Positions 8,460 through 37,506 of a stretch of 45,508 bases of DNA are shown here, one piece after another (position 1 is the stretch's first letter; each line of letters opens with the position of its first letter). The notes under the pieces are model-generated. The model was given only the letters and a program-made list of their open reading frames with translations. It had not been told where the DNA came from and did no database searches. The position numbers were made by a program, and so were the translations under genes. This DNA comes from a virus: the IMG/VR virus record IMGVR_UViG_3300010373_000066, positions 1 through 45,508 of that record; one strand, given 5' to 3'.

Positions 8460-9100
8460 AGAATCAGGATTTAAAGCGTAGAATCATAGATATTAGTTAT
8501 AAATTAAAACTAGGACATATCGGCAGTTGTCTGGTGGCTGTTGATAAGATAGCTGAGATTTATGATAAAAAAGAACCTGATGAGAGATTTGTTTTATCAA
8601 GTGGTCATGCACACTTGGCACATCTGGTGGTTAAAGATAAAGATGAGAATCTTTCTAAGCAGTACGGAATTGATTTTGCCATGGAAATGGTTAAGGACTA
8701 TGGCATTCACTGTGATCGTCAGGCGGGTTGTGATGTATCAACAGGCTCACTAGGACATGGTATAGGGATTGCCCTTGGTATGGCGTTAGCAGATCGGACG
8801 AAGAATGTGTATTGTATAATCTCTGATGGAGAAACATCTGAAGGCTCAGTTTGGGAGGCATTGCGGATTCAGAAAGAACAGTATGTAACCAACCTTCTTG
8901 TGTATTGTGTCATAAATGGATGGGGTGCGTATAAAGAGATTAACTCAATAGAATTATCAAATAAGCTAGAATATTATTCATGGTGTACTCCTATCCATGT
9001 CAATATGGGGATGTATCCTAAATGGTTACAGAGCCAAGAGGGACATTATGGTGTACTGGATAAAAAACGATATGATGAGGTAATGGAGATATTACAATGA
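8456..9100 (+). CDS. Transketolase, N-terminal (thiamine diphosphate-binding) subunit
   Basis: A 214-residue protein equal to the first domain of transketolase. It has GHIGS (20-24), LSSGHAH (48-53), GSLGHG (97-102) and the thiamine diphosphate motif SDGE (123-126) with the partner Asn at 154, 30 residues after the Asp. These sites bind cofactor diphosphate and metal. The catalytic glutamate domain is encoded separately at 9552, so the enzyme would be a two-subunit assembly. It could move two-carbon units in the pentose phosphate pathway or in building an unusual sugar; the neighbours favour the second. Confidence 0.85.
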   Translation: MKNQDLKRRIIDISYKLKLGHIGSCLVAVDKIAEIYDKKEPDERFVLSSGHAHLAHLVVKDKDENLSKQYGIDFAMEMVKDYGIHCDRQAGCDVSTGSLGHGIGIALGMALADRTKNVYCIISDGETSEGSVWEALRIQKEQYVTNLLVYCVINGWGAYKEINSIELSNKLEYYSWCTPIHVNMGMYPKWLQSQEGHYGVLDKKRYDEVMEILQ

Positions 9101-9279
9101 TTAGACAAATAGCAATTAAACTAGGCTTATGGGAAGAGGTAGAGTATGTGACTGAAATTACTCAAGAGGAGAAAGAGTTCTTACTTAAAGCGCTTAAACA
9201 TTACTGTGATCCTTGCAAGAGGTGGTTTGCTGATACACGAGGTAAATTGATGCATGATAGACATAGACATAAAGAATGA
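9097..9279 (+). CDS. C2H2 zinc-finger microprotein
   Basis: A 60-residue product whose last 25 residues form C-X2-C-X12-H-X4-H with Phe and Leu in the canonical core positions, like a eukaryotic-type classical finger. The N-terminal half is an acidic helix. It overlaps its neighbours by four bases on both sides and sits between the two transketolase subunits. DNA or RNA binding is a reasonable guess. Confidence 0.65.
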   Translation: MIRQIAIKLGLWEEVEYVTEITQEEKEFLLKALKHYCDPCKRWFADTRGKLMHDRHRHKE

Positions 9280-9506
9280 GAAAAGGTTGTCCCATGTGTG
9301 GGAAATTTACATCTGAAGTATGGCGCATAGCATATATAACATGGGTTTGTAATAGATGTTTAAAAGATATAGAAAAATTTAAAAACAAGCTTAAGAAAAT
9401 AAATGCTGAAATAAAATATCTTAATGAGCCACGAAGTACTATCGAGAGATTGAAGGAAGAATGTTTTGAGAAATATGGAGCTAAATTTATACGAGAGAAT
9501 AAATAA
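9276..9506 (+). CDS. Zinc-ribbon plus coiled-coil protein
   Basis: A 76-residue protein with CPMC at the start and CNRC about 20 residues later (one zinc ribbon), followed by a basic helix and a mixed tail. It is the second small zinc protein between the transketolase subunits and ends just before a hairpin-rich spacer. Confidence 0.65.
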   Translation: MRKGCPMCGKFTSEVWRIAYITWVCNRCLKDIEKFKNKLKKINAEIKYLNEPRSTIERLKEECFEKYGAKFIRENK

Positions 9507-9508
9507 CA

Positions 9509-9553
9509 GTTAACGACATAAGGGGGGGGAATTTCGTTAACGCCTCCCCTTAT
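9509..9553 (+). promoter_or_regulatory. Interlocked inverted repeats and G8 tract ending at the next start codon
   Basis: The spacer holds two overlapping dyads. GTTAACG at 9509-9515 pairs with CGTTAAC at 9535-9541. ATAAGGGG at 9518-9525 pairs with CCCCTTAT at 9546-9553, which includes the first two bases of the ATG. The order is a-b-a'-b', so the two hairpins exclude each other in full form and could act as a translational switch. A run of eight G (9522-9529) lies inside and could slip. Confidence 0.5.
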
Positions 9554-10028
9554 GAGAAAAGAATTTGCATCTCATCTACATAAGCTGATGTCAGAAAATG
9601 ACGACATCTGGCTTATTACTGCTGATCTTGGATTTGGTCTCTTTGATAAAATCCGTCAAGATTTCCCTGATAGATTTATTAACACAGGTGCAGCGGAACA
9701 AGCAGCCTCAGACATCTGCGTTGGTCTTGCATTAGTTGGCAAGATACCCGTCATGTATTCTATAACCCCATTCCTTCTCTATCGTTGTTTTGAAACCTGG
9801 AGAACCTATGTCAATCACGAAAAAATAAAGGTTATCTTAGTTGGAAGTGGGAGAAATGATGATTATAAACATGATGGATTTAGTCATGATGCAAGTGATG
9901 ATAGTAGTTTCATGGTAAGCTTGCCTAATTTTATTTCCACATGGCCTAAGAATTCTAAGTTTGCAATTAAAGCTCTTGAGACCGCTATTAATGATACTAG
10001 CCCTTGGTATATCAATCTAACCCGATGA
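9552..10028 (+). CDS. Transketolase, C-terminal (pyrimidine-binding) subunit
   Basis: A 158-residue protein equal to the central Pyr domain of transketolase. It has the catalytic Glu49 in NTGAAEQ, the ITADLG start, the SITPFLLYRCFE stretch that packs on the cofactor ring and a DGFSHDASDD loop like the DGPTHQ loop of the family. The third domain of full-length enzymes is missing, as in many split forms. It pairs with the subunit at 8456. Its stop overlaps the large terminase start as ATGA. The hairpin spacer upstream suggests translational control. Confidence 0.85.
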   Translation: MRKEFASHLHKLMSENDDIWLITADLGFGLFDKIRQDFPDRFINTGAAEQAASDICVGLALVGKIPVMYSITPFLLYRCFETWRTYVNHEKIKVILVGSGRNDDYKHDGFSHDASDDSSFMVSLPNFISTWPKNSKFAIKALETAINDTSPWYINLTR

Positions 10029-11356
10029 GTACAATTACCCTGCCTATTAAAAACTTTGCTGCACAGCAAAAGGTTTTTGATTCAAAAGCCCGGTATGTCG
10101 TTGTTCCAAAAGGACGACGGTTCGGTCTCACAACTGGTGCAAAGAATGATCTTATTAAAGGTGCTCTCAGACGTGAGTATACAAGTGCTCTTTGGGGTGA
10201 TGTGGTGAACTCAAACATTGAGAAATATATTCAACGGCTCTTCTTGCCAACTCTTCAGAAGCTTCCATCACATGTTTGGTCATGGACGAAAGATCCACAT
10301 ACGATCCAGATCTATGACTCGTACATTGATTTCAGGTCAGCAGAACGTCCAATGAGTTGGGAGGGATTTAAATATGACTATGTGTTCTTAAATGAAGCAG
10401 GTATTATTCTTCTTAATCAATATCTTTGGGAGAATGCTGTACGTCCTATGATGTGGGATAATCCTAAATCTCGTGCTATCTTTGGTGGCACACCTAAGCT
10501 TGGATGTGTGGTATTTAAAGAACTGTATGATAGAGCACTTGATCCGGGGCAACCTGATTATGAAGGCTTTAAATTCTCCTCTTTCGATAATCCCTACATG
10601 CCACGACAGCTTATTATGGATGATATTAAATCTATGCCACAGCGAGTGGTACAACAAGAGATCTATGGTGATTTCTTGGATGATGATGGTGTGGTATTTC
10701 GGGGTGTCGATCACGTGGCAATTCTTGATCCGAATAAGACTCCTGAGCCAAATTATGGACATAATTATGTCATGGGTGCAGATATTGCAAAGCTTGTCGA
10801 CTGGACGGTTCTCACAGTCTATGACCGAACAGATAATAGACAAGTCGCACAACTTAGATTTAATGGGCTTGAATATCCAGCAATCAGAGCAAGAATCAAG
10901 CATTTATCTGATAAATATAACCGTGCACTTGTGATGCTTGATAGTACAGGAGTTGGAGAACCAACATATGATGATTTAGTGCAAGAAGGCGTGCCAGTAC
11001 AGCATATTCACTTGACAAATGAGTTGAAAAAGCAGATTATTGAAAAGCTCAGTAGTTGGATAGAACTTAAGCGTATTTATATGCTTAACCTTGATGAAAC
11101 CAAGCGGGAACTGAAGCAGTTTACGTATGACATCTCGGAGAAAACTAAACGAGTTATCTATGGAGCACCTATTGGATTTCATGACGATATTGTCATCTCA
11201 CATGGTTTAGCTATCTGGGGAATGCAGCCGGTTATCATGGAGAAACTGTTTGAGGAGATGACAGTGATTCAGCAAGATCTTGCCATGAAGCGAGGTCAAG
11301 GGCCACAGGATGACTGGCAAGAAGTAGAGGATATACAATATGGAGGATACGAATAA
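10025..11356 (+). CDS. terL: Terminase large subunit
   Basis: A 443-residue packaging motor. The N-terminal ATPase shows a Walker A-like KGRRFGLTTG (29-38), a Walker B-like YDYVFLNEAG and the coupling motif FGGTPKLG. The C-terminal RNase H-fold nuclease shows three acidic positions: MGADIAKLVDW, VMLDSTGVG and GFHDDIV. It cuts concatemers and drives DNA into the prohead with the portal. The start at 10025 gives the ATGAG form and an ATGA overlap with the previous gene. An upstream in-frame start would add seven residues and is not favoured. Confidence 0.92.
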   Translation: MSTITLPIKNFAAQQKVFDSKARYVVVPKGRRFGLTTGAKNDLIKGALRREYTSALWGDVVNSNIEKYIQRLFLPTLQKLPSHVWSWTKDPHTIQIYDSYIDFRSAERPMSWEGFKYDYVFLNEAGIILLNQYLWENAVRPMMWDNPKSRAIFGGTPKLGCVVFKELYDRALDPGQPDYEGFKFSSFDNPYMPRQLIMDDIKSMPQRVVQQEIYGDFLDDDGVVFRGVDHVAILDPNKTPEPNYGHNYVMGADIAKLVDWTVLTVYDRTDNRQVAQLRFNGLEYPAIRARIKHLSDKYNRALVMLDSTGVGEPTYDDLVQEGVPVQHIHLTNELKKQIIEKLSSWIELKRIYMLNLDETKRELKQFTYDISEKTKRVIYGAPIGFHDDIVISHGLAIWGMQPVIMEKLFEEMTVIQQDLAMKRGQGPQDDWQEVEDIQYGGYE

Positions 11357-11837: not shown

Positions 11838-11909
11838 TTTGGTGTAGTCTAATCGGTAGGATATAGGGTTTTGACCCCTAGGATTGAAGTTCGAATCTTT
11901 ACACCAAAA
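11838..11909 (+). tRNA. tRNA-Gln (anticodon TTG)
   Basis: A 72-nt cloverleaf folds by hand. The acceptor is TTTGGTG (11838-11844) with CACCAAA (11902-11908) and discriminator A. T8 and A9 are present and the D arm is GTCT/GGAT. The anticodon stem is TAGGG/CCCTA around TTTTGAC, which puts TTG at positions 34-36. The T arm is TGAAG/CTTTA around TTCGAAT. CCA is not encoded. It would read CAA and CAG. Several virion proteins downstream are very Gln-rich, so it may support their translation. Confidence 0.9.
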
Positions 11910-11916
11910 CAGCTCT

Positions 11917-12595: not shown

Positions 12596-12625
12596 TTTAC
12601 AAAATGGATACTTTACGTGTACACT
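12596..12625 (+). promoter_or_regulatory. Promoter for portal gene (TTTACA-18-TACACT)
   Basis: TTTACA at 12596-12601 and TACACT at 12620-12625 are separated by 18 bases. The portal ATG begins six bases after the -10 box, so transcription would start at or very near the ATG. The spacing and -10 match three other promoters in the window. Confidence 0.65.
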
Positions 12626-12631
12626 TGGTAC

Positions 12632-14938
12632 ATGAGCGATAATCGTATCAACTCAGCCATTCTTCATTCTCCTAATTCTACACACGTTGGACGACTCATT
12701 GAAGATATGTCCTTCCAGGCAATCATGAGACGAAGGTCTTGGGAACGCCGGTGGTACAACACCAACTGGTTTGATGATGGACTCCACTTTAGAATGGTCA
12801 ATAATCGTACAGGACAAATTATTGATCATGTACAACGCTTTGCTGGATATATTGAACGTGCTATTCCTAGAGCAAGTAAACAAGTACGTGGTATCGGTGC
12901 ATTACTTTTAACTCCTAACTATTATCCCGTTGTGTATCCAGAACGAGTAACAATGGAAGACTTCAGAGACAAAATGTCTGGTCAAATAGACATGCTTCGG
13001 TATCGTATGGCTATGGAGAAAGCCAAGGAGAGCGCCCGAAAACAAGGCATCTTCTTAACAACTACTTGGGAGGATGAACTGGAGCTTGAGACAAAACTCA
13101 TGGATATGATCCTTCTGACTGCAAAAAATGGCATATCTTATCTTCAGATCTATACTGATCCGATCACCAAACGCATTAAAGGTGATGTATTGGACGCCTT
13201 TGATCTTATCTGTTATGGAGATGTCAGAGAGCTTGATGATCTACCATTCATTACTAAAACTGCCTCATGGGACTTTAATGAAGTCATGTCTAGTGAGTTA
13301 TTTGATGAGGATAAAAAGAAAGATTTATCACCTGACAATCTCTATGCCACCAGTGAAATTAAAGAAGCATACATGCGAGCTCGGTATGGCATGAAGCTTA
13401 ATGCTCAGAATTTAAATTCAATCATTGTTAAGGAGACCTTTATGAAGGAATATCTTTCAGATGATAATTGGGATCAAGCAGTTAAGCTTGGCTCTGATAC
13501 AGGTGCAATGGAAGGAAAGAGTAAGGGCGATATGATTATGCGCCATCCCTTCTCAGCAGGTGGAGTATGTTTGAAAGATGAATATATCCCCTATGATGAA
13601 TATCCTTTTGCAGAGCTTCGGTTTGAGTCAGGCTATCTTTATCAAGTGCCCCTCATGGAGAGATTTATTCCGTTAAACAAATCCCAAGATATTGTGGTCA
13701 CTCGTATTGAGAAATGGATTAATACTATGGTGACTGGTATTTATATGACCAGAAAGGGAGAGAATCTCCAGATTGCAAATATTCCAGGAGGACAACAAGT
13801 GAAATATGAACAAGCGCCACCAGAGCAGATGAATATCTCTAGTGTTGGTTCAACGCCATTTCAGTTTATGGAAATGACAGATAAATATATTGAGGAGCAA
13901 GGTATTTCCAGTAATAACATTAGTCAATTGCCAAATAATATTGCAAACAATACTATTGAGAATATTCAACAGCAGGAGTATACAAACATGCGCTTTGCTA
14001 CAGCACGGCTTAAGAAGTGTGTGACTCGTGTGGGAGAGCTTATCTTAGAGCGTGCGGATAAAGATTATGTCAGACCAGTTGAAATCTCATACAAGGAAGA
14101 TAAAGAAGTGAAATATTTCTCTGTTATTGGTTCAAGAGGTCATAAAGCACACAAACGAATTGGAGCAAAACTTCCTGATGATATTGTGACTCTTAATCAT
14201 AAACTCAAGATCAGAGTTGAAGCAGACCAAGGATTTGGTTTGACCCAAGACGGGAGACGACAAGCGCTTGATGTTCTTATGAAGAATATGACCGTACTCT
14301 ATCAGGAAGGGTTCTTATCTGCTGATGCAATGGCTATGCTTGTCAAGCGGTTTGTTGAGGAATATGGTTACGGTGCAACAGAGGAGTTCATGGAAGCTGT
14401 AGAAAATGGAGTAACCCAAGGACAGATGAGTAATAACCAGATACAACAGCTCAAGATTGCCGTCTTACAAGTTCTTAAGGATCTGAAGATGACACCTGAC
14501 GGACTTGAGGGACTCCTTACTAAACATAATGATGCGAACTTGCAAACAACTAAGCTTGGTGTACTTCAGACAATGAAAGAAGTTGGATTATTAGATCAGT
14601 TAAACCAAGAAGGTAAAACAAATATTGAGGTTGATGATTTAGTTAAACTCTATAAAGATGCACCAGATGATGTTAGAAGACAAATTGAACAGCTTCTTGG
14701 CATGAAACCATCAAGTGCAGAACCAATTAGTCCATCACAAGCGGATAGTGCTCATAAATTACATGAGGTTGTTAAAGGACAGCATGAAATGTCTCAAACT
14801 GAAAAACAAACTGAACTAGCAGAGCGTCAACAGGAACATGCTGAGAGTCAATCAGAAGCAGAAAATCAAAATACCCAACAAGAGCTAGAGATTAAGAAAC
14901 AGGCAGCAAGTAGACCGACACCAACAGCGAGTCAGTAG
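12632..14938 (+). CDS. Portal protein
   Basis: A 768-residue protein, the size of podovirus-type portals, placed between terminase and scaffold as usual. It has a mixed N-terminal half with many aromatic residues, a long central helical part around NIANNTIENIQQQEY typical of the portal stem region, and a Gln/Glu-rich C-terminal tail from about residue 700. As a dodecamer it would form the DNA gate and bind terminase and adaptor. ATGAG at 12632 is chosen over the upstream GTG because the promoter -10 box lies between them. Confidence 0.85.
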   Translation: MSDNRINSAILHSPNSTHVGRLIEDMSFQAIMRRRSWERRWYNTNWFDDGLHFRMVNNRTGQIIDHVQRFAGYIERAIPRASKQVRGIGALLLTPNYYPVVYPERVTMEDFRDKMSGQIDMLRYRMAMEKAKESARKQGIFLTTTWEDELELETKLMDMILLTAKNGISYLQIYTDPITKRIKGDVLDAFDLICYGDVRELDDLPFITKTASWDFNEVMSSELFDEDKKKDLSPDNLYATSEIKEAYMRARYGMKLNAQNLNSIIVKETFMKEYLSDDNWDQAVKLGSDTGAMEGKSKGDMIMRHPFSAGGVCLKDEYIPYDEYPFAELRFESGYLYQVPLMERFIPLNKSQDIVVTRIEKWINTMVTGIYMTRKGENLQIANIPGGQQVKYEQAPPEQMNISSVGSTPFQFMEMTDKYIEEQGISSNNISQLPNNIANNTIENIQQQEYTNMRFATARLKKCVTRVGELILERADKDYVRPVEISYKEDKEVKYFSVIGSRGHKAHKRIGAKLPDDIVTLNHKLKIRVEADQGFGLTQDGRRQALDVLMKNMTVLYQEGFLSADAMAMLVKRFVEEYGYGATEEFMEAVENGVTQGQMSNNQIQQLKIAVLQVLKDLKMTPDGLEGLLTKHNDANLQTTKLGVLQTMKEVGLLDQLNQEGKTNIEVDDLVKLYKDAPDDVRRQIEQLLGMKPSSAEPISPSQADSAHKLHEVVKGQHEMSQTEKQTELAERQQEHAESQSEAENQNTQQELEIKKQAASRPTPTASQ

Positions 14939-16088: not shown

Positions 16089-17381
16089 ATGGCAACAACA
16101 GCACAAGGCATAGGAGATTATTCAGCAGGGTTTGAGAAAATCATCCAACCCTTTATTCAGGATAATGTCCCAGAACAAACAAAGCTTCTTAAAATCCTGA
16201 AGACCAATGATAACGTTCAGGAAATGAACAACAACTTCTTTGTCACTATCCGTTCAGGCCGACACGGTGGAGTACAAACAATCGCAAACGATAAATCCAA
16301 ACTTAACACAGGTGGTGCTCCTGTTACTCAGGGAACACTTTCTCCAACCTATCAAGCAGCAGTTTTTGACATCTCAGATGTCGTTATGAAAGCCTCACGA
16401 ACTCGTAAACAAGCTCTTATGAATGATCTTGACTTCCAAGCAAAAGCACTTGTTAAAGACTTCTCAAAACAAATTAACCGTCAAATGTTCTCTGATGGTG
16501 TAGGGATTATAGCTATGGTTCCTGAATCAGGTGGATCATTGTCAGGATCTTCTCTTCAGATTCAATATCCAAATGGTGATATGACAACAGATGGAAGAGC
16601 AACCGCATACTACGGTACAACTTCAGGTGGTATTAATGGTGATATCTTGCCATGGCAGAAATATTTCGCTCCAGGAAACATCATTGGTATCGGATCAGCA
16701 GGTACTTCAGTTGGAACCATTTCTGCAACTGGTATTTCAGGTGGAACAGCATTAGGAACACTTGTTTTAACAGGTAATACATCAGGCGGAATTCCTGCAT
16801 CAGCACCTATTTATATTCTTGATGGGGATGCTGACGCAGCAGGTACAACTGAAATTCAAGGATTCAGAGCTGCACTTTCAGAAGGAACAAGTAACTACAT
16901 GGGTCTTGCAAGATCAACGCTTACTTGGCAACCACAAATCTATGGTACAGCAGCAAACCAGTCAATTAGTATCCCTGCTATGGAACAAGTCTTCCATTCA
17001 GCATACGAGTTTGCAAGTCCTGAAGATCGATACTGCTGGTTTGTTAACAAGTCCTTGTATACAAGAATTGGTGATCTATTAACAGCACTTCGTAAAACAG
17101 TTAATAAAACAGAGCTTATCTCTGGATGGAGTGGGTACTCATTTGAAGCAGGGGAAGGAAACGTTGCAATCTATAAAGATTATGATTGTCCTGATGGTGA
17201 AGCTGTGCTTGTTAACCTTGACACATGGACTGTATGTGAGATTGCACCAATGGGATTTGTTCAAGATAATCTGTTAAGACGTGCTGACTTTATTACTTTC
17301 CAAAAAGTATTTAGTTGGTACATGAACTTAGCATGTAGAGCACCTGCTGCAAACGGGCGCATGGTTCGACAAACTCGATAA
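16089..17381 (+). CDS. Major capsid protein
   Basis: A 430-residue protein right after the scaffold. The first 120 residues have the extended arm and long helix expected of an HK97-type fold. A Gly/Ser/Thr-rich insertion follows in the middle (about residues 150-250). The C-terminal part contains EAGEGNVAIYKDYDCPDGEAVLVNLDTW, like the final beta domain of capsid proteins. The start is supported by the previous stop 11 bases away. Assignment rests mainly on position, size and composition. Confidence 0.82.
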   Translation: MATTAQGIGDYSAGFEKIIQPFIQDNVPEQTKLLKILKTNDNVQEMNNNFFVTIRSGRHGGVQTIANDKSKLNTGGAPVTQGTLSPTYQAAVFDISDVVMKASRTRKQALMNDLDFQAKALVKDFSKQINRQMFSDGVGIIAMVPESGGSLSGSSLQIQYPNGDMTTDGRATAYYGTTSGGINGDILPWQKYFAPGNIIGIGSAGTSVGTISATGISGGTALGTLVLTGNTSGGIPASAPIYILDGDADAAGTTEIQGFRAALSEGTSNYMGLARSTLTWQPQIYGTAANQSISIPAMEQVFHSAYEFASPEDRYCWFVNKSLYTRIGDLLTALRKTVNKTELISGWSGYSFEAGEGNVAIYKDYDCPDGEAVLVNLDTWTVCEIAPMGFVQDNLLRRADFITFQKVFSWYMNLACRAPAANGRMVRQTR

Positions 17382-18602: not shown

Positions 18603-19253
18603 ATGCCTGATACACAAGCACTATTCTTTAAAGACTTCGAAAATGCGCATATCCCCGAGATCATGGAAGAGATCTATCTTCAGAGTATTTATGCACCTTA
18701 TCTTATTGGTAAAAGAGATTTAATTGTCGTTGATGTGGGACAGAATATTGGACTCTTTTCTTATTATGTTCATGATCATGCTAAACGTGTAATAGGTCTA
18801 GAACCTTCTACGATGCATCAGGACACACTCAAACAGATGATTAAGTTCAATAAGCTAACGAATGTTGAAACACTTCCCTATGGTCTTTCTAATGAGAATG
18901 GGGAGAAGACGTTTTATCTTACAAAAAATACTACTGCATTTTCTCTTATGCAACTTGATCCAAACGTTCAGACTGAAACAATTCAGGTAATAGATGTAGA
19001 TAAGTTATTTGAGCTTGCAAAAATTGATCATATAGATCTCCTAAAACTTGATCCTGAAGGAGAGGAGTCAAAGATCATTACTTCAGATGCTTTTAAAAGA
19101 CATACTAAAGATATCCCACTTGTCATTGGAGAATGGCATAATTGGTCTGCTATGTCACAGATTCAGTTTAAACAAGCATTTGAAAAACTAGGGTATACAT
19201 TCCATTGGATAGGAGGAACACGTGCTGCATGTTATGTGGCACAACAAGTATGA
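18603..19253 (+). CDS. FkbM-family methyltransferase
   Basis: A 216-residue SAM-dependent enzyme. Motif I is VVDVGQNIGLFSYY, motif II carries the acidic GLEPS, and the later IDLLKLDPEGEESKI is the hallmark FkbM block, followed by VIGEW. FkbM enzymes usually O-methylate sugars or antibiotics. The two glycosyltransferases that follow suggest that it caps a glycan on the virion or the host surface. Its stop overlaps the next small gene as ATGA. Confidence 0.85.
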   Translation: MPDTQALFFKDFENAHIPEIMEEIYLQSIYAPYLIGKRDLIVVDVGQNIGLFSYYVHDHAKRVIGLEPSTMHQDTLKQMIKFNKLTNVETLPYGLSNENGEKTFYLTKNTTAFSLMQLDPNVQTETIQVIDVDKLFELAKIDHIDLLKLDPEGEESKIITSDAFKRHTKDIPLVIGEWHNWSAMSQIQFKQAFEKLGYTFHWIGGTRAACYVAQQV

Positions 19254-19306
19254 CATGTATTCATGGTGGTGATCCAGCATTCTGTAAAAAGTGTAATAAA
19301 AGATGA
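19250..19306 (+). CDS. 18-residue Cys-rich microprotein
   Basis: The product is MTCIHGGDPAFCKKCNKR. Three Cys and one His are spaced C-x-H...C-x-x-C, enough for one zinc ion. It uses ATGA overlaps with both neighbours, which is hard to explain if it is not translated. Function unknown. Confidence 0.55.
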   Translation: MTCIHGGDPAFCKKCNKR

Positions 19307-20166
19307 AAAATGTCGTCCAAACTCAACAACAAGAAAAGGTTTGCTTCTTTGCGGTAGCAGATGTCAATAACTTCAAGTATGGGGTGACTTTTTGGAAATC
19401 TATGGTTAAATTCCATGATCCACAGGAGATAACCATGCTTTTCTATACAAACATGCAGGATAAAACTGAGCTTGCCAAGCTTCCTAAAGAGGTTCAAGTA
19501 GTCGATCTTACACCATATCTTGAAGATTCAATGTTCTTTTATCGACAGAGGCCTATTCTTATGGAGGAACTCTTAAAGGACTATGACCTCGTTGTTGGCT
19601 TTGATGTTGATCAATTAGTCCTTGCACCGCTTGAGGATATATTGAAGGTAAAGACTTATGATATAGGAACTGTTATTAATTGGAACAGACACGATGAGAA
19701 GTTCTACCCAGTTGTTGAAATAGCACGAGTTGGCATCTGGCCGATTGAATATTTTAACTGTGGAATGGTTGCCGTGCGATCAAGAGATTTTGTTCATAAA
19801 TGGAAAGTCTGGTGTTTCACCGAGCAGTTTAATCGAAGCCAATATAAAGAACAAGACGGGCTAAACCTCTTATGTTACGTAGGTAATTACAATGTGTGGT
19901 GCTTTGATAATCCTGCCTCAAAGGATGCAGATATGCACTGGTATGGAATTATCTCAAAAGGCGAGCTTGCACGGTCTGAGATTAAAGAGGGTAAGGTATT
20001 TATTCCAAAGGGTTTAGGTGATACCCCATTTCCTGCGGCAGATGTATGGGTTCACTTGGTACATATGGGTGGGGGATCAGGAGCACTCAAAGATAATTGG
20101 AGTGCATTTTTCCCTGAAAATGTAATGCATTATATTAATAATGATATCTTAGGAATATTAAAATGA
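19303..20166 (+). CDS. GT-A fold glycosyltransferase (GT8-like)
   Basis: A 287-residue protein. It starts with a nucleotide-binding strand (VCFFAVADVNNF) and has the metal-binding DVD at residues 101-103 in VVGFDVDQLVL, a YFNCGMVAV acceptor-side motif and a QDGLNLL stretch. These fit family 8-like or related retaining enzymes that use nucleotide sugars. It overlaps the next gene by four bases. Glycosylation of capsid, tail or host envelope is the likely role. Confidence 0.8.
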   Translation: MKNVVQTQQQEKVCFFAVADVNNFKYGVTFWKSMVKFHDPQEITMLFYTNMQDKTELAKLPKEVQVVDLTPYLEDSMFFYRQRPILMEELLKDYDLVVGFDVDQLVLAPLEDILKVKTYDIGTVINWNRHDEKFYPVVEIARVGIWPIEYFNCGMVAVRSRDFVHKWKVWCFTEQFNRSQYKEQDGLNLLCYVGNYNVWCFDNPASKDADMHWYGIISKGELARSEIKEGKVFIPKGLGDTPFPAADVWVHLVHMGGGSGALKDNWSAFFPENVMHYINNDILGILK

Positions 20167-21365
20167 ATAGAAAATTAAAAATCATGTGGACTTCCAATCA
20201 CTGGAAGGCTTCGAGTGGTTACGCTCAACAGAGTGCTGATATCAGACGGAAGCTTCTTGAGTCAGGGTGGGATAAGACAAATCTTGCATTTGTAAATAAT
20301 TTTGGTCAGATTGGCTATGTTACTCATGATGAAGATGGATTAACAAATTATCCCTCCATGGATCACATATCAGGCTCAGATGCAATGTTATGGCATGGAA
20401 GACATTTTGGAGCAGATGTAACATTTGGACTCTTTGATCTCTGGATACAAAACCCGCAAGACCTGGCACAACTTACCCGATTTATTCCATGGTGTCCTAT
20501 TGATTATGATCCTGTCCCTCCACCAATTCTTCAGAATCTGAGGTTTGCCAATCGTATTGTTGCCATGAGTAAATTTGGTCAAAAGAAGCTACAGGAGGCA
20601 GGATTTTCATCAACGTATATTCCACATCACGTTGATACAAAAATCTTTTATCCACTAAGTAAAGAGGAGAGAATGCAAAGGCGAGTTGCAGCAGGTATTG
20701 ATCCGAATGCGTTTATCTTTGGGATGGTAGCCATGAATAAGGATATGTTAACCCGCAAGTCATTTGGTCAAGTAATCGATGCTTTTGCCGAGTTTGTGAA
20801 GAAGCATCCTAATAGCTTTTTATATATTCATACTAATCCTGATATGGCAAATGCGTATCCTATCAAAACTCATGCTATGCAAAAGGGTGTCTTGCAACGG
20901 ATTATCTTTCCTGATCAATACAAACGAGAGTATCTCTGTACGAAACAAGATATGAATTATATTTATAATACCTTTGATGTTTATCTGATGCCAAGTTCAA
21001 CTGAAGGCTTTGGAATAACTGCTATCGAAGCACAAGCGTGTGGCATACCTGTTATCACGAATAACTATACTTCAATGCCTGAACTTATCATTCCTGAAGT
21101 TACTGGTTACTTAACAGAAGTGGGTTGTCAGCATTTTATTCAAGTTGGATCATACATGAAATATCCATCAATTGAGAGTTTATATAAACAGATGATACGC
21201 ATGAAGGGCATGAAGCTTGATCTCATGGGAGAAAAAGCACGAAAACATATTGAGAAAACCTATGCGCTTGATAAGGTATGGAGCGAGAAATGGATACCCT
21301 ATTTGAACAATCTAGAGAAAGAAATGTACCCAGACTCCTTGACAACGCCTCAACTGTCAGCGTAA
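20163..21365 (+). CDS. GT-B fold glycosyltransferase (GT4-like)
   Basis: A 400-residue protein with an N-terminal SGYAQQSADI region, the linker around FGMVAMNKDMLTRKSF and the C-terminal donor site SSTEGFGITAIEAQACGIPVI, the E-x7-E signature of family 4. It would transfer a sugar from a nucleotide donor. Together with the FkbM enzyme and the GT-A enzyme it makes a three-enzyme glycan module between head and tail genes. Confidence 0.88.
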   Translation: MNRKLKIMWTSNHWKASSGYAQQSADIRRKLLESGWDKTNLAFVNNFGQIGYVTHDEDGLTNYPSMDHISGSDAMLWHGRHFGADVTFGLFDLWIQNPQDLAQLTRFIPWCPIDYDPVPPPILQNLRFANRIVAMSKFGQKKLQEAGFSSTYIPHHVDTKIFYPLSKEERMQRRVAAGIDPNAFIFGMVAMNKDMLTRKSFGQVIDAFAEFVKKHPNSFLYIHTNPDMANAYPIKTHAMQKGVLQRIIFPDQYKREYLCTKQDMNYIYNTFDVYLMPSSTEGFGITAIEAQACGIPVITNNYTSMPELIIPEVTGYLTEVGCQHFIQVGSYMKYPSIESLYKQMIRMKGMKLDLMGEKARKHIEKTYALDKVWSEKWIPYLNNLEKEMYPDSLTTPQLSA

Positions 21366-31572: not shown

Positions 31573-32589
31573 ATGGCATCATTTCCAGGTACAGTTGTTT
31601 CATTAACGAATCCCTCAGGGACAAGTCTTGTTTCAGGACCCATTGATCATGCGCTACTCCATGGATCAGTTAATAATGAGGTTACAGCGATTGAAGGATT
31701 TTTAGGAACAAACTCAGCAACAAACGTATTCGCAGGATACAAATCAGGATGGGTTCCTTTAGCAGTCAATGGAGGAACACTTCAAGGGGTAGTTGCTAAA
31801 GGAACATTTAATAATGGTATTTTGGGAACTCCTTCAATTACTGGTGGGACAGCGAATAGTCAAACACTAAATGGACAAGGAACAAATTCTGGAACGATCA
31901 TTAATGGAGTATATAATAATGCAACTCTTGGAACACCAATAATAAATGTTTGGAATGGGTGGATACAGGCAAATGAAATAGCAACAGTACTTGGGACAAC
32001 CTCAGCGCAAGGCATAAATATAGGAACACTAACAGTACAAGCAACAGCCTCAAATAAATATGATAAAGGAGATAAATTACAATTCACTCAAGGAGGATCG
32101 ACTTTGTGTGCTTACGTGTATTCTGTTCCTTCAGGAACGACTCTTCTTGCAACGGGAGGAACAACGTATGTGATAGGAACAACAGCGATAACGAATTTTC
32201 AGTACTCAAAGAGCACAAATCCTAATGGGTTTCCTGACTGGCTAGATTATACCTCAGGCGTTAATTATACAGGCACAGCACCGACCGGACTCACAACGAC
32301 AACTTCCCAATTTAAGATTGATGGTCATGAAGTCAGATATAGATTTCATGTCTCATATGGAACAGCAGGGACAACAACAGGGGTATTTATTAACCAGCCA
32401 ATCCCATCAAATATAACGGGGAATATTTTTCATGATCCTGCAATGGGATTATTATCCTCGGCTGATGATACGAACGCTCCTAACGGTGTTCCATTTGAAT
32501 GTACTCTTGCAGGGGGAACGACAATCCAGATGCAATACGGTAATAACGCAACAAAGGCTGTCTGGATACAGGGCAATTATGCAATATGA
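31573..32589 (+). CDS. Tail fibre or receptor-binding protein
   Basis: A 338-residue protein starting MASFPGTVVSLTNPSG and containing the DHALLHGSVNNEVTAIEGFLG block, which recalls the N-terminal attachment segment of many phage fibre proteins. A Gly/Thr/Asn-rich shaft with GTPSITGGT-type repeats follows, and a globular C-terminal half (from about residue 200) with aromatic strands could be the receptor-binding head. It overlaps the RelA/SpoT-like gene by four bases. Confidence 0.75.
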   Translation: MASFPGTVVSLTNPSGTSLVSGPIDHALLHGSVNNEVTAIEGFLGTNSATNVFAGYKSGWVPLAVNGGTLQGVVAKGTFNNGILGTPSITGGTANSQTLNGQGTNSGTIINGVYNNATLGTPIINVWNGWIQANEIATVLGTTSAQGINIGTLTVQATASNKYDKGDKLQFTQGGSTLCAYVYSVPSGTTLLATGGTTYVIGTTAITNFQYSKSTNPNGFPDWLDYTSGVNYTGTAPTGLTTTTSQFKIDGHEVRYRFHVSYGTAGTTTGVFINQPIPSNITGNIFHDPAMGLLSSADDTNAPNGVPFECTLAGGTTIQMQYGNNATKAVWIQGNYAI

Positions 32590-33287
32590 GAGGAAGCGTA
32601 CCAGAACAACAAATAACTCCACAACTTGCTGTTAAAGTAGCACCTGATGTGGTTAGCCCACAAGGCCAACAACAGTTACAACTAAAACGTCTAGCAGCAC
32701 AAAAGGTGAAAGACATGCTAGATCAGGCATTTAAGATGGCTGCATCAACTATCCCAGGAGCAACTTTCAATTCACGAATTAAAAACATGGATGTAGCACA
32801 GCGAAAGATTATCCAAAAACGTGTGGAGGGAAGAAAGTATGGTATGGATAATCTTAACGATCTGTACGGTGGAAGATTCACTGTTGAAAAACCAGAAGAT
32901 TTTAAAAAAGTAAAACAAGAACTCTCCCAGATGGAAGATGCAGGACTGTTTAAAATTAAGAAGCAAGAAACTGTGAGAGTAGGTAATTATGAGGCGTATC
33001 ATAGTGATATTGTTGCTCCTGATGGAACGAAAGCAGAGGTACAGATACATCTACCTCAATCAGAATCAGAGTCAGTTAGTAATCACGATCTGCGGGCATT
33101 ATATGGTGAAAAGCCACCAACGCCTATTAGAAAGCTTGTAGACATGCAAGCGGATATAAATGATAAAATGCCAAATGGAAAGGCTCGTGCGATTACTCAA
33201 GCCCTCCAGTTACTTCATAAAATGAATGGTGATAAACCAATTCCTCCTGAGTTGACAGCGAGTATTTTACAACAAGCCCGACAGTGA
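32586..33287 (+). CDS. RelA/SpoT-like nucleotidyltransferase (alarmone synthetase or toxSAS type)
   Basis: A 233-residue protein. After a 60-residue helical lead it shows the synthetase signature in order: SRIK at 63-66 (equivalent of R-x-K-S), DLYGGR at 92-97 (like D-x-x-G-x-R), NYEAYH at 134-139 (like G-Y-x-x-x-H) and EVQIHLP at 151-157 (the E-x-Q-I-R-T position, catalytic Glu151). These residues bind ATP and transfer pyrophosphate in RelA/SpoT enzymes. Family members make (p)ppGpp or, as toxSAS, other products including modified tRNA. There is no HD domain in this protein, but one is encoded at 35619. ATGA overlap with the fibre gene couples translation. Confidence 0.75.
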   Translation: MRGSVPEQQITPQLAVKVAPDVVSPQGQQQLQLKRLAAQKVKDMLDQAFKMAASTIPGATFNSRIKNMDVAQRKIIQKRVEGRKYGMDNLNDLYGGRFTVEKPEDFKKVKQELSQMEDAGLFKIKKQETVRVGNYEAYHSDIVAPDGTKAEVQIHLPQSESESVSNHDLRALYGEKPPTPIRKLVDMQADINDKMPNGKARAITQALQLLHKMNGDKPIPPELTASILQQARQ

Positions 33288-33293
33288 TATACT
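33266..33293 (+). promoter_or_regulatory. Promoter (TTTACA-16-TATACT)
   Basis: TTTACA (33266-33271) and TATACT (33288-33293) are 16 bases apart at the end of the RelA/SpoT-like gene. They would drive the small gene at 33319, which has its own ribosome site. Confidence 0.5.
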
Positions 33294-33318
33294 AATGTGT
33301 ACAAAGGGGGTGATTTGA

Positions 33319-33480
33319 ATGGCGAATGTATCAATTACGAGAAATCCAGATAATAGTTTTCATGTAGTTGTTTCTAAAGTGGTTACACAAGAAGCAAAGG
33401 AAGAATTTAATTTTGGAAGCGTTGAAGAGGTAAATGCAAAGGTGGCAGAAGTTGCTAATGCAGAAGCTCCAACAGCATAA
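33319..33480 (+). CDS. Small acidic protein with strong ribosome site
   Basis: A 53-residue protein with a beta-like first half (MANVSITRNPDNSFHVVVSKV) and a Glu/Ala helix. GGGGGTGA precedes the ATG, one of the few clear Shine-Dalgarno sites. Being small, soluble and just after the alarmone synthetase-like gene, it could be a partner of it, but nothing in the sequence proves that. Confidence 0.6.
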   Translation: MANVSITRNPDNSFHVVVSKVVTQEAKEEFNFGSVEEVNAKVAEVANAEAPTA

Positions 33481-33484
33481 GAAA

Positions 33485-33751
33485 TTATTTAGGTAGATAA
33501 ATGGGACTTTCAGGCATTGTGAGTCCCATTTTGGCAGACTCCGTAGCAATCCGTATAAAACTCTCTTTTTGTAAAAGCTCCATTTGTAACGCATTATTTT
33601 CAATAATTAATTGTTGTATCTCTTGTTTATTTTGTAAATATTGTGGGGTTTGAGAATACAGAGAATCACTCAGGTAAGAATTAATGAAATAAAAGAGAAT
33701 ACATATTATGATCAATAGTGCTAAAACTAGATTTTCTCTGCTCAACATCAT
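33485..33751 (-). CDS. FtsL/DivIC-like septum-type membrane protein
   Basis: An 88-residue leftward gene. A short N-terminus is followed by one transmembrane span (about residues 8-26), then a coiled coil (QNKQEIQQLIIENNALQMEL) and a C-terminal SFIRIATESAKMGLTMPES block. This matches the FtsL/FtsB/DivIC layout, whose hallmark end is an A-R-x-x-x-G-M-x-x-P motif. Such proteins hold the division machine together. A phage copy could disturb or replace host division. The main alternative is an inner-membrane spanin, as the lysis genes are adjacent. Confidence 0.55.
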   Translation of the reverse strand: MMLSRENLVLALLIIICILFYFINSYLSDSLYSQTPQYLQNKQEIQQLIIENNALQMELLQKESFIRIATESAKMGLTMPESPIYLPK

Positions 33752-33805
33752 ATACTAAGATAGGCGAGCTGAATTAGATAGTTTTATTCCTGTCTGAATG
33801 ACTGT

Positions 33806-34000
33806 TTACTTCCTCGTGATGCGCCTCTTGAATTTATTTCTGGAGGCGTTTCTTTTTAATCTGATCATATCCCACCTTTCATATTTCCTAATGTTAAATT
33901 GTGCATCTCCTCGAAACCATGTGACTGAATAAAGAATAAGACATACTGCAAGTAGCCTCCAATCACCAAAATCGTTGTAAATTTGTGACCATATTGACAT
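33806..34000 (-). CDS. Small basic membrane protein
   Basis: A 64-residue leftward protein with one hydrophobic segment (about residues 14-30) and a strongly basic C-terminal tail. Start at ATG 34000 is chosen over TTG 34009. Its 5' end overlaps the -35 of the rightward endolysin promoter, so the two may be expressed exclusively of each other. Confidence is limited by lack of homology. Confidence 0.45.
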   Translation of the reverse strand: MSIWSQIYNDFGDWRLLAVCLILYSVTWFRGDAQFNIRKYERWDMIRLKRNASRNKFKRRITRK

Positions 34001-34023
34001 AGTGAACAATAAAAGTTTACACT
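33994..34023 (+). promoter_or_regulatory. Promoter for endolysin (TTGACA-18-TACACT)
   Basis: TTGACA (33994-33999) and TACACT (34018-34023) are 18 bases apart, matching the 15170 promoter exactly in both boxes and spacing. ATG begins eight bases after the -10 box, so the message would be leaderless or nearly so. Confidence 0.75.
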
Positions 34024-34031
34024 AATGAGGT

Positions 34032-35141
34032 ATGGATGCTAAAGTCCAATCTTTTCTCAATGAGTGGAATGGTAAAATAATCCCCTTTGTTAATGTTCCT
34101 ACTGGCTCTTGTATGGCGGTTGCCCATCAATTTATAAAGGAAATTCTCGGCATTCAAGATCCTCTTGTAATTTATGGAGAGTTTGCATATATGGTATATA
34201 CTAACTTTGCGAATTTACCCGCAGCGAAATATTTCACTTTGGTTGCAAATACTCCAACAAACGTTCCAACAGTTGGAGATATACCAATTTATGGTCAAAC
34301 TGCTGATACCCCTGAAGGACATATATGTGTATTTGTTGATGGAGATGTGAAGTCGTTTCGGAGTATTGATCAAAACTATCCTACTGGCTCCTCTACTCAT
34401 CTACAAACACATACATATGATGGGCTTCTGGGATGGCTTCATTTTAATGACCCAGCACAATCTCAAACAACAAACGTAACCGTCACTGATCAACAAATAA
34501 CAGATCAATTAAATGCACAGATCCAAGCAACAAATGCATGTCAGTCACAACTTAAAGAAGCAACAGCGCAAGCGGCAACGCTTCAGACCCAGTTGACACA
34601 GGCAACAGATCAGATATCATCACTACAGGAGCAATTAAATGAAGCAAACACTAAAATTACTATTCTTCAGACCCAGCTTGGTGGTGAACAAAAAGAAATT
34701 GTCAATCTTAATGAGCAAATTGAGAAGCAAGCTTCATCAAATAAGGACTACGCTCAAGAGATATATACCCTAAGTCATGAAAATACCTCTCTTACAAATT
34801 CTCTTAATAGTATTGTTGATGGCCTCGGTGTATCTCGAACTCAAAAAACACTAGATCAAATAACAAAAGATGCGCTCTCCAAGGAAGACGATTTAGATCT
34901 TATTCTAAAAGCAGCAGGGATCGCAACGGGAATACTTCATAATGTTGCTAAAGAATTAAACCTTGATGACCCCAACGCAACGGATCAACAGATAGGAGAT
35001 CGAATCATACAATATGTTAAAAAGCTCAGTCTTAAAAATTTAATGCCTACAAAATCTGAAGATGGAGTAATTATCACTGGAGTAAGCTTTTGGTCAAAAA
35101 TCAAAGGATGGTTTTGGGAACCGAAAGGGGGTGCTATATGA
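34032..35141 (+). CDS. CHAP-domain endolysin with coiled-coil tail
   Basis: A 369-residue protein. Residues 1-135 form a CHAP amidase/peptidase domain: Cys27 in TGSCMAVAHQF, His97 in EGHICVFVDGD and a RSIDQNYPTGS...GLLGWLHF end. Residues about 145-270 are a Gln/Thr-rich coiled coil. The C-terminus is helical with a final WSKIKGWFWEPKGG. CHAP enzymes cut peptidoglycan cross-bridges or stem peptides. The holin-like genes directly downstream support a lysis role. Confidence 0.82.
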   Translation: MDAKVQSFLNEWNGKIIPFVNVPTGSCMAVAHQFIKEILGIQDPLVIYGEFAYMVYTNFANLPAAKYFTLVANTPTNVPTVGDIPIYGQTADTPEGHICVFVDGDVKSFRSIDQNYPTGSSTHLQTHTYDGLLGWLHFNDPAQSQTTNVTVTDQQITDQLNAQIQATNACQSQLKEATAQAATLQTQLTQATDQISSLQEQLNEANTKITILQTQLGGEQKEIVNLNEQIEKQASSNKDYAQEIYTLSHENTSLTNSLNSIVDGLGVSRTQKTLDQITKDALSKEDDLDLILKAAGIATGILHNVAKELNLDDPNATDQQIGDRIIQYVKKLSLKNLMPTKSEDGVIITGVSFWSKIKGWFWEPKGGAI

Positions 35142-35320
35142 ACATTTCAATCAATGGAACTGTTAGCAGTTTTTTCTTAGCATGTTTAGTATTTTGGTTA
35201 TTTGAGAAGGGGATTGATTTAATTGTTTCTGATCCAGTAACAAATAAATTATTCAAAGTGGTATTATTTATACTCTGTGTCGTTATTGCATTAACGACTC
35301 AAATATTTATTCATTCTTGA
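35138..35320 (+). CDS. Holin candidate, two spans
   Basis: A 60-residue protein with two hydrophobic segments (about residues 8-24 and 35-57), no signal motif and a start supported by AAAGGGGGTG upstream. It overlaps the endolysin stop as ATGA and is followed by another membrane protein. Small size, two spans and position fit a holin or antiholin. Confidence 0.65.
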   Translation: MNISINGTVSSFFLACLVFWLFEKGIDLIVSDPVTNKLFKVVLFILCVVIALTTQIFIHS

Positions 35321-35325
35321 CAGAG

Positions 35326-35619
35326 ATGAAGGAGATTGCTTACACTGTAGTTATGAGTGCTGACTCAAGTTTACTTATCCGATCAATAGTGGGGGTCTTA
35401 GCAGGTCTTCTAATAGCAAGTGGTTATTTGCCATCGGAGACAAAGGATGCTTTTATTAATGATGCTTCAACAGTAGGTGGGATAAGTCTAACAATTATTT
35501 CTCTTGTCTATGCACTTGAACATGCATTACTTAAAGTTAAGAATGATCTTAAAGATCCGTCATCTCCTTCAGTTACTGTAACTTCTACTGTGAATACTCC
35601 TGCTCAACCAACTATATAA
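35326..35619 (+). CDS. Second holin-like membrane protein
   Basis: A 97-residue protein with two hydrophobic stretches (about residues 17-34 and 50-65) separated by an acidic loop, plus a Ser/Thr/Pro-rich end. The ATG at 35326 is preferred; a TTG at 35317 overlapping the previous stop is also possible. It is likely the partner holin. Its stop overlaps the next gene as TAATG. Confidence 0.6.
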   Translation: MKEIAYTVVMSADSSLLIRSIVGVLAGLLIASGYLPSETKDAFINDASTVGGISLTIISLVYALEHALLKVKNDLKDPSSPSVTVTSTVNTPAQPTI

Positions 35620-36077
35620 TGCTCAGTGATAATGAATTAATTAATAAAGCATTCCTTTTTGCTAGTGAGAAACATCAAGGACAAACATATAATGATGGTG
35701 AATATATTCAGCATCCATTACTAACATATGAAATACTCACGAAAATTTCTCCCGAGGATATCAACCTTCGCACGGCAGGACTTCTCCATGATCTCAGTGA
35801 AGATCAAGGTGTCACCAAAGAAACGCTTCAAAAGGAATTTAATGAGGATGTGGCAGACTTGGTTATACAAGTATCAAAAGATGAAAACAAGAATTTCCCT
35901 ATCACCTCCTACAGAGGACTGATCTTAAAAGTTGCTGATAGACTCGCTAATGTCAGTAATTATCAAACTCTCCCACCTGAACGAAGAGCTAAATTATTTA
36001 ATAAATATGCAAACGGCTTCGTGTATGAAGGAAGTAACCTGAAAGTTAGAAATATTGTTACTGAAAAAATCAAATAG
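35619..36077 (+). CDS. Small alarmone hydrolase (RelA/SpoT HD domain, MESH1-like)
   Basis: A 152-residue stand-alone HD hydrolase. It has QHPLLTYEIL with His32, LLHDLSEDQG with His57-Asp58 and Glu61-Asp62, and KVADRLANV with Asp107. This is the metal-binding set of SpoT/RelA hydrolase domains, including the ED pair specific to (p)ppGpp hydrolysis. The length matches single-domain hydrolases. In known toxSAS pairs such hydrolases act as antitoxins; a synthetase-like gene lies 2.3 kb upstream at 32586. Coupling to the holin-like gene suggests late expression. Confidence 0.8.
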   Translation: MLSDNELINKAFLFASEKHQGQTYNDGEYIQHPLLTYEILTKISPEDINLRTAGLLHDLSEDQGVTKETLQKEFNEDVADLVIQVSKDENKNFPITSYRGLILKVADRLANVSNYQTLPPERRAKLFNKYANGFVYEGSNLKVRNIVTEKIK

Positions 36078-36355: not shown

Positions 36356-36514
36356 TTATTGCTGAGGTTTTTCGGAGGATTCTTTTAACTCATCTTTCAT
36401 GCGATCGGCTTGTCGCCAATAGGAGAGTTCTTTTTTACATTCCTGCAACTTCTTGAATTGATATCCAATAAAGCAAAGCTCAACAATGGTGATTATGATT
36501 AAAAACGTTGTCAT
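36356..36514 (-). CDS. Small membrane-anchored protein coupled to integrase
   Basis: A 52-residue leftward protein with one hydrophobic segment (about residues 3-17) and a charged helix containing ECKKELSYWRQADRMKDEL. Its ATG overlaps the integrase stop as ATGA on the minus strand, so it is probably co-translated with the integrase. Function unknown. Confidence 0.65.
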   Translation of the reverse strand: MTTFLIIITIVELCFIGYQFKKLQECKKELSYWRQADRMKDELKESSEKPQQ

Positions 36515-37506
36515 TCTTCTAATTCATGTACTTGAAAGCTAACATGTTTTTCGCCTTTAAGTGCTTTAATAAAAAACCGTTCTTTATCAATTACACGTTC
36601 TATCACATCTTTACCAGTTTCCATGATAATGTCAAGAGTCTGTTTCTTCTTAAATCGGGGATGATAGGTATGCAGAGTTGTATTTAATTCATCAAGAAGC
36701 ACATGGACGTAGTGACGATATGTAGTCTCGATCCTCTTGTGCCCTGCCATCTTTGAGACCATTTCCAATGATGCGCCATTTCGCAACATAAAATTCACAA
36801 AACTATGACGAATTAAATGACTATAGACCCGACGACTTATACCGATAATCCTACAACGTCGTGTAATGTCTTCTGAGACACTTTCATCCCTGATATGGTG
36901 CCCTAACTCATTTGAAAAAATAAACCCCCCAAAATGCGGTAGAGTGACAATTTCATGGTAGAGTTCGTTATCTATGGGTGAAATTCGATATTCGTAGGTT
37001 TTTGTAGCATTATAGATAACATAGGGAAAGCTTCCCATTTTGATATCGTCCCACCTCAATTCTAGCACTTCATTGATTCTAGCACCAGTAAGAAACAGGA
37101 GCGTTATGATAGATTTATACATCTGGTTTTTTCGTTTGGCATCTGTTCGATAGGGGTAATCAAGGGTAATGATTTTCTCAATTTGCTGAGGAGTCAGGTA
37201 ATCAATAATACTTTCAGGCTTTCGGAAATATGTGTAGTCTTGGATCTCATTGAGTTTATAAAAGCGGTCAATATGTTTTGCAAGCTTTATGAAGTTGTTG
37301 ATGTAGTTATTTGAATATCCTTTCTCTTTTAAGTAGCCAATGAATGCTGTGAAGTTGGCACGGTTAAATTCCCTCTCCCCAAAATAGCGGCACATAATGA
37401 AAAACCGTGATTGATAGACTCCGATATTATGTTTACTTGCTGATAATTTTCGGTCATAAATCAAATATGGTTTTAGTTCTTCAAACAGTTTTGGATCTAG
37501 TGTCAT
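36511..37506 (-). CDS. int: Tyrosine-type integrase
   Basis: A 331-residue leftward recombinase. The N-terminal 100 residues form the SAM-like core-binding domain. The catalytic domain shows Arg143 in TGARINEVLEL, Lys169 in NATKTY, His230-x-x-Arg233 in SHLIRHS, His256 in GHKRIETT and the nucleophile Tyr near 263-266. All catalytic residues are present, so the enzyme is probably active. It would integrate or resolve the circular genome. A tRNA-Glu-like sequence lies about 135 bases upstream of its start. Confidence 0.92.
   Translation of the reverse strand: MTLDPKLFEELKPYLIYDRKLSASKHNIGVYQSRFFIMCRYFGEREFNRANFTAFIGYLKEKGYSNNYINNFIKLAKHIDRFYKLNEIQDYTYFRKPESIIDYLTPQQIEKIITLDYPYRTDAKRKNQMYKSIITLLFLTGARINEVLELRWDDIKMGSFPYVIYNATKTYEYRISPIDNELYHEIVTLPHFGGFIFSNELGHHIRDESVSEDITRRCRIIGISRRVYSHLIRHSFVNFMLRNGASLEMVSKMAGHKRIETTYRHYVHVLLDELNTTLHTYHPRFKKKQTLDIIMETGKDVIERVIDKERFFIKALKGEKHVSFQVHELEE

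What the first reader, a model, noticed from the sequence alone, without database searches (positions are those of the whole stretch)
32586..36077. Phage carries both a RelA/SpoT-like synthetase and a stand-alone alarmone hydrolase around its lysis genes
The sequence shows a synthetase-type protein at 32586-33287 (SRIK, DLYGGR, NYEAYH, EVQIH in family order) and an HD hydrolase at 35619-36077 (His32, His57-Asp58, Glu61-Asp62, Asp107). From the known families, these are the two activities of RelA/SpoT, and toxSAS toxins are paired with small alarmone hydrolase antitoxins. Here they are split, 2.3 kb apart, with endolysin and holins between. Inference: the phage tunes host (p)ppGpp, or carries a toxSAS-type defence or shut-off system linked to lysis timing.
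Basis: partly seen in the sequence, partly recalled or inferred. Interest (0 to 1): 0.82.

Follow-up and report, generated by a model that had tools for sequence, protein, structure and literature searches.

The report
Phage alarmone synthetase with separate hydrolase
A phage from a lineage that probably infects tiny Patescibacteria carries a divergent enzyme of the type that makes the bacterial stress signal (p)ppGpp, coupled to its tail-protein genes, and a separate enzyme of the type that destroys that signal, resembling but not matching known phage toxin-immunity sets.

Summary
ORF 32586-33287 is a RelA/SpoT-fold protein (Pfam 6e-8, above cut-off; Foldseek best PDB match RelQ/SAS1) with Arg/Lys, Asp, Arg, His, Glu and Gln active-site positions kept in a 41%-identical relative. 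ORF 35619-36077 is a SpoT/MESH1-type HD protein. The synthetase overlaps the tail-fibre-like gene (ATGA) and ends the virion gene run. Only three phages, one 100/100 capsid clade, carry it; all three also carry an HD hydrolase, and the 16 surveyed relatives carry neither. The window's hydrolase is not the ortholog of the other two (AU p=0.031): hydrolases were acquired twice, or replaced. Stand-alone HD hydrolases are common in phages without any synthetase, so a functional pair is suggested, not shown. A related prophage sits in a Candidatus Roizmanbacteria genome that has no detectable synthetase. Closest known systems are MuF-Apk2/IapK/Aph1 prophage toxin-immunity sets and RelA/SpoT domains of injected polyvalent phage proteins, but this protein has no MuF domain and is not a multidomain fusion. 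Best reading: a late-made, probably virion-delivered alarmone synthetase with a hydrolase as safeguard. Catalysis, delivery and pairing are untested.

The parts
32586..33287 (+). stand-alone RelA/SpoT-fold synthetase-like protein, 233 aa; conserved N-terminal tail (ITPQ...VSPQG), long helix, SYNTH core ~63-170, C-terminal helices
   Evidence: Pfam RelA_SpoT 6.4e-8; Foldseek RelQ 3.6e-6; 41% identical relative in G001 with R64 K66 D92 R97 H139 E151 Q153 kept
35619..36077 (+). HD hydrolase of SpoT/MESH1/SAH type, 152 aa; start codon overlaps the stop of the holin-like ORF (TAATG)
   Evidence: Pfam HD_4 4.6e-12; NCBIfam spoT_relA 8e-21; Foldseek MESH1 4e-6
33319..33480 (+). small acidic ORF (53 aa) with Shine-Dalgarno AAAGGGGGTGA, directly downstream of the synthetase; possible immunity or virion protein
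   Evidence: a 50-aa ORF with AAAGGAGGTGA holds the same place in G001; sequence similarity not significant
31573..32589 (+). tail-fibre/appendage-like gene; its stop overlaps the synthetase start (ATGA)
   Evidence: homologs directly before the synthetase in G005 and in synthetase-less relatives
34032..35141 (+). endolysin with N-terminal catalytic part and coiled coil
   Evidence: phrog_635 4e-13, phrog_8781 1e-11
35138..35320 (+). small membrane ORF in the lysis cassette (ORF listed from TTG 35090; ATG at 35138)
   Evidence: no confident family
35317..35619 (+). holin-like membrane ORF
   Evidence: weak Phage_holin_10 match, 21.8 bits, below cut-off
36511..37506 (-). tyrosine integrase: temperate phage
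   Evidence: Pfam Phage_integrase 7e-23, phrog_1 1.6e-38
10004..11356 (+). terminase large subunit
   Evidence: phrog_2 3.6e-30
12617..14938 (+). portal protein, 73% identical in G001
   Evidence: phrog_156
16089..17381 (+). major capsid protein used to define the phage family
   Evidence: phrog_14242

Best explanation
The synthetase gene encodes a divergent small alarmone synthetase made late, together with the tail and virion proteins. It most likely acts as an effector co-assembled with or ejected from the virion, as proposed for phage polyvalent and MuF-Apk2 proteins. It would transfer pyrophosphate from ATP to a purine nucleotide (motifs lean to GTP/GDP, giving (p)ppGpp) and so slow growth and translation of the infected or competing cell. 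The HD protein, made with the lysis genes, would degrade the product and keep the producing cell able to finish its burst. Shown: both folds, conserved catalytic residues, overlap with the tail-fibre-like gene, clade-restricted co-occurrence, two separate hydrolase origins. Inferred: enzyme activity, acceptor, virion delivery, functional pairing.
For: Fold and family matches. Catalytic positions conserved at 41% identity. Synthetase at the end of the virion genes in G001 and directly behind the tail-fibre-like gene in the window and G005, while its gene is absent from other relatives. Best viral fold neighbours include RelA/SpoT domains in large phage proteins, one annotated ART-PolyVal-like, a class described as injected with phage DNA (PMC5512222). 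Synthetase and HD co-occur in 3/3 clade members and 0/15 other virus records; hydrolase origins differ, a convergent or replacement pattern. Small ORF behind each complete synthetase, as behind MuF toxins (PMC11699363). RSH-like syn2/syn3 motifs by the signatures of PMC12226406.
Against: No delivery domain is recognised; a virion location is inferred only from gene order. The acceptor-binding Tyr (Y135) is not at the same position in G001. The 'IR' of syn4 is IH here and IL in G001. The guanine-contacting Arg region of the hydrolase (RxSGE in Rel) is altered in all three phages. 38 other HD-bearing phage records have no synthetase above cut-off. Genes are not adjacent. The co-occurrence count rests on one clade and was examined after seeing the data.
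Confidence: 0.4

Rival explanations
1. The two genes are unrelated in function. The hydrolase is a generic phage accessory gene that removes host alarmones or signals of alarmone-type defence; the synthetase is a separate accessory gene.
For: HD relatives are common in phages: 102 annotated phage records and 104 virus loci, and 38 of 38 checked had no synthetase above cut-off. The two genes sit in different gene groups.
Against: In this capsid family HD occurs only in the three synthetase carriers, with two separate origins, on 8-19% of the family's capsid-tree length.
Confidence: 0.3
2. A late intracellular regulator: the synthetase raises (p)ppGpp near the end of infection to shut host functions or set lysis timing, and the hydrolase resets it; nothing is delivered by the virion.
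For: Overlap with a late structural gene and hydrolase start overlapping a holin-like ORF.
Against: The hydrolase is not lysis-linked in G001 and G005. The conserved N-terminal tail is unexplained by this view.
Confidence: 0.18
3. A toxSAS toxin-antitoxin or prophage defence module (CapRel/FaRel2/PhRel-like) that blocks competing phages from the lysogen.
For: Temperate phage (integrase); RelA/SpoT fold; small ORF adjacent.
Against: No PADLOC match at a meaningful level (best E 0.014); no recognised antitoxin domain in the adjacent ORF; gene lies in the virion gene run rather than as an independent cassette; hydrolase not adjacent.
Confidence: 0.07
4. The synthetase has lost catalysis and now serves as a structural virion protein.
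For: Position at the end of the virion genes; divergent syn4 and shifted Tyr in G001.
Against: R64, K66, D92, R97, E151 and Q153 kept at only 41% overall identity.
Confidence: 0.05

Closest known systems
MuF-Apk2 / IapK / Aph1 prophage toxin-immunity sets (PMC12226406, PMC11699363)
   Same: Phage-encoded RelA/SpoT-fold synthetase tied to virion genes, small ORF behind it, HD hydrolase in the same phage
   Different: No MuF domain; not in the head-gene block after the portal; hydrolase not adjacent; syn2/syn3 motifs are RSH-like (GGR, AYH) rather than Apk-like (RYT, GxN)
RelA/SpoT domains of phage polyvalent proteins (Iyer et al. 2017, PMC5512222)
   Same: Among the best viral fold neighbours; phage virion-associated context
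   Different: A 233-aa solo protein, not a multidomain fusion
RelQ/RelP small alarmone synthetases
   Same: Fold and most active-site positions; best PDB matches
   Different: Remote sequence similarity (single-sequence search E 0.06-0.2; profile E 1.6e-5 to 2e-4); phage virion gene context; conserved N-terminal tail
toxSAS toxins (FaRel2, CapRel, PhRel2)
   Same: Small synthetase of RSH fold on a mobile element
   Different: No adjacent recognised antitoxin; not tested for tRNA activity
Small alarmone hydrolases / MESH1 / Aph1
   Same: HD fold with H32, H57-D58, E61-D62, D107, N111
   Different: Base-contacting RxSGE segment altered; substrate unknown

Membership tests
RelA/SpoT synthetase (SYNTH) superfamily | RelA_SpoT domain above curated cut-off and fold | tested here: met
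   Pfam 33.3 vs 27 bits; Foldseek E 3.6e-6
RelA/SpoT synthetase (SYNTH) superfamily | ATP- and Mg-site residues (RxK, Asp, Glu) conserved | tested here: met
   R64, K66, D92, E151 invariant with G001 and aligned with 2be3
RelA/SpoT synthetase (SYNTH) superfamily | Acceptor-stacking Tyr in the G-loop | tested here: inconclusive
   Y135 present in the window; offset by one in G001
RelA/SpoT synthetase (SYNTH) superfamily | Pyrophosphotransferase activity | not testable with these tools
   needs biochemistry
(p)ppApp synthetase Apk | syn2 RYT, syn3 GxN, syn4 YH | tested here: not met
   window GGR/AYH/IH, G001 GSR/AWH/IL, read against the signatures in PMC12226406
Apk2 MuF polymorphic toxin | N-terminal MuF domain | tested here: not met
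   no MuF match at E<=1 in Pfam or PHROGs; N-terminus is a ~60-aa tail plus helix
Apk2 MuF polymorphic toxin | HD hydrolase gene adjacent to the toxin | tested here: not met
   2.3 kb apart in the window; about 12 kb in G001
toxSAS toxin-antitoxin | Bicistronic operon with a recognised antitoxin | tested here: inconclusive
   adjacent 53-aa ORF without Pfam match
toxSAS toxin-antitoxin | Toxicity neutralised by the partner | not testable with these tools
   needs co-expression
Phage polyvalent protein | Multidomain protein with RelA/SpoT among other effector domains | tested here: not met
   233 aa, only one domain found
SpoT/SAH-type HD hydrolase | HD fold with H, HD, ED, D metal and catalytic residues | tested here: met
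   H32, H57-D58, E61-D62, D107, N111 invariant in three phages
SpoT/SAH-type HD hydrolase | Guanine-contacting RxSGE segment (HD1) | tested here: not met
   YNDGE here, DDEG in G001 and G005, against RQSGD of Mtb Rel

The most novel reading that the evidence does not exclude
A Patescibacteria phage lineage installs a complete, self-contained alarmone cycle (virion-delivered synthetase plus phage hydrolase) in hosts that have themselves lost the RelA/SpoT synthetase, so the signal is used purely as a phage weapon or control.
Probability: 0.15. Interest if true: 0.78.

Novelty: new variant of a known kind. Interest (0 to 1): 0.5.

Why it matters
Phage alarmone synthetases are known mainly as MuF or polyvalent fusions. 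A solo version overlapping a tail-fibre-like gene, kept together with hydrolases of two different origins, in a phage lineage linked to reduced-genome Patescibacteria, would widen the known use of alarmones as phage effectors. It would also make testable whether phages deliver alarmone enzymes into hosts that lack the pathway: about 71% of the sampled class genomes, many probably incomplete, and the one known host of a relative showed no synthetase.

Tried and rejected
Single-sequence scans for P0001 in annotated phages, plasmids, viral contigs and genome contigs found no relatives; relatives came only through the phage family. Profile scans of viral contigs gave only G001 and G005. A Patescibacteria sample of 380 genomes gave only weak matches, mostly inside long open frames that look like RSHs. 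'HD is an ortholog that moved' was rejected by tree and AU test. Homology of the two small ORFs behind the synthetases was not significant, p about 0.13-0.16. The N-terminal tail as a shared delivery module: not found in any other protein of the fetched loci. Promoter and terminator scans were at chance level. No RNA element apart from the tRNA. PADLOC and toxSAS assignment unsupported.

Full report
OBSERVATION. The window is an IMG/VR virus record of 45,508 bases with terminase, portal, capsid, integrase, DnaD-like, primase and DnaB-like genes: a temperate tailed phage. Both reported ORFs exist. P0001 (32586-33287) hits Pfam RelA_SpoT above cut-off (6.4e-8) and P0002 (35619-36077) hits HD_4 (4.6e-12). 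AlphaFold models (P0001 pLDDT 70, core blocks mostly 75-93; P0002 75.5) match RelQ/SAS1, Rel and the exported synthetase 8vx3, and MESH1, Rel HD and the (p)ppApp hydrolase 7smg. Model confidence is moderate, because only two sequences were available for each alignment.

RELATIVES. P0001 has no match in annotated phages or plasmids. The phage family was reached through terminase, tail and capsid proteins. G001 (IMGVR_UViG_3300005458_000038; portal 73% identical) encodes a 41% identical synthetase and an HD protein. G005 (IMGVR_UViG_3300046360_000134; capsid 77%) has the first ~68 residues of a synthetase, cut by the contig end, and an HD. Fifteen other virus records of the family have neither, nor PF04607; several are fragments. 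For the genome-borne relative L043 (G018), PF04607, the synthetase profile and the HD profile found nothing in the whole genome. The three carriers form a 100/100 clade in a capsid tree.

SYNTHETASE. Between the window and G001, R64, K66, K74, D92, R97, H139, E151, Q153 and a C-terminal NHDLR...GEK are invariant. The acceptor Tyr aligns with RelQ-type proteins in the window but is offset in G001. By the signatures given in PMC12226406 (Apk: RYT, GxN, YH; RSH: AVR, SxH, IR) the phage motifs are GGR/AYH/IH and GSR/AWH/IL: RSH-like at syn2 and syn3, divergent at syn4. A guanosine acceptor is therefore favoured but not shown. The N-terminal tail (ITPQ..VSPQG) is conserved in all three and occurs in no other protein of the fetched loci. 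The gene starts inside the stop of the tail-fibre-like gene; in G005 it follows that gene's stop by about one base; in G001 it follows a glucosaminidase-like virion gene. A small ORF with a strong Shine-Dalgarno follows directly in the window (53 aa) and in G001 (50 aa), without significant sequence similarity.

HYDROLASE. In G001 and G005 the HD gene lies between two genes related to 19303-20166 and 20163-21365; in the window those genes overlap by four bases and the HD gene follows a holin-like ORF. G001 and G005 HDs are 71% identical to each other and 49-63% identical to several HDs of other phages, but 38-39% to the window's; a tree with the three as one clade is rejected (AU p 0.031). So the hydrolase was gained twice, or the ancestral one was replaced. 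The carrier clade makes up 8% (crown) to 19% (with stem) of the capsid-tree length, so two gains inside it by chance would be unlikely (roughly 0.007-0.03). That estimate was made after seeing the data, rests on one clade, and some relatives are incomplete. Against a dedicated pair: 38 HD-bearing phage records had no synthetase above cut-off.

HOST. A relative (capsid 52%, portal 48%) is integrated in a 487-kb contig named Candidatus Roizmanbacteria, flanked by ordinary bacterial genes and an integrase related to the window's. That genome shows no RelA_SpoT domain; 54 of 187 genomes sampled from its class do, mostly in open frames of 350-600 aa. Genome completeness is not known for these. The window's own host is thus probably, not certainly, a Patescibacterium.

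MECHANISM AND COMPARISON. The nearest described systems are MuF-Apk2 prophage toxins with IapK and Aph1 and RelA/SpoT domains of injected polyvalent proteins. The best viral fold neighbours include large phage proteins of the latter kind, one annotated ART-PolyVal-like. The present protein works plausibly like them but is a member of neither: it lacks MuF, is not a fusion, and its hydrolase is not adjacent. I therefore favour a late-made, probably virion-delivered synthetase with a hydrolase as safeguard (0.4), with 'two independent accessory genes' as the main rival (0.3).

SCORE. New variant of a known kind; interest 0.5. The original lysis-timing link is not supported by the relatives.

Noticed in passing
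L008:2596-4465 (G001): G001 encodes GroES-like and GroEL proteins (phrog_5725, 1.8e-143) within its virion gene block; virus contig L070 also has a GroES/GroEL-like pair followed by an HD hydrolase and a terminase gene.
   Followed up: partly
window 7244-10028: Nucleotide-sugar epimerase (7244-8125) followed by a transketolase split in two ORFs (8456-9100 N-terminal half, 9552-10028 pyrimidine-binding half), conserved in G001 and in the Roizmanbacteria prophage.
   Followed up: partly
window 18603-21365: FkbM-type methyltransferase and glycosyltransferase genes inside the virion gene block, conserved across the family; possibly capsid glycosylation.
   Followed up: no
L065-L067 (Candidatus Roizmanbacteria UBA1450, DCTC01000002.1): A prophage of this capsid family integrated beside host uvr genes, which links the family to Patescibacteria.
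   Followed up: yes
window 11838-11910: tRNA-Gln (TTG) gene between the terminase and portal genes.
   Followed up: no
window 33485-34009: Two minus-strand ORFs (88 and 67 aa) between synthetase and endolysin, the first with a membrane segment and coiled-coil look; function unknown.
   Followed up: no
L008:10558-11196 (G001): HNH/AP2-type homing-endonuclease-like ORF inserted between two tail genes.
   Followed up: no
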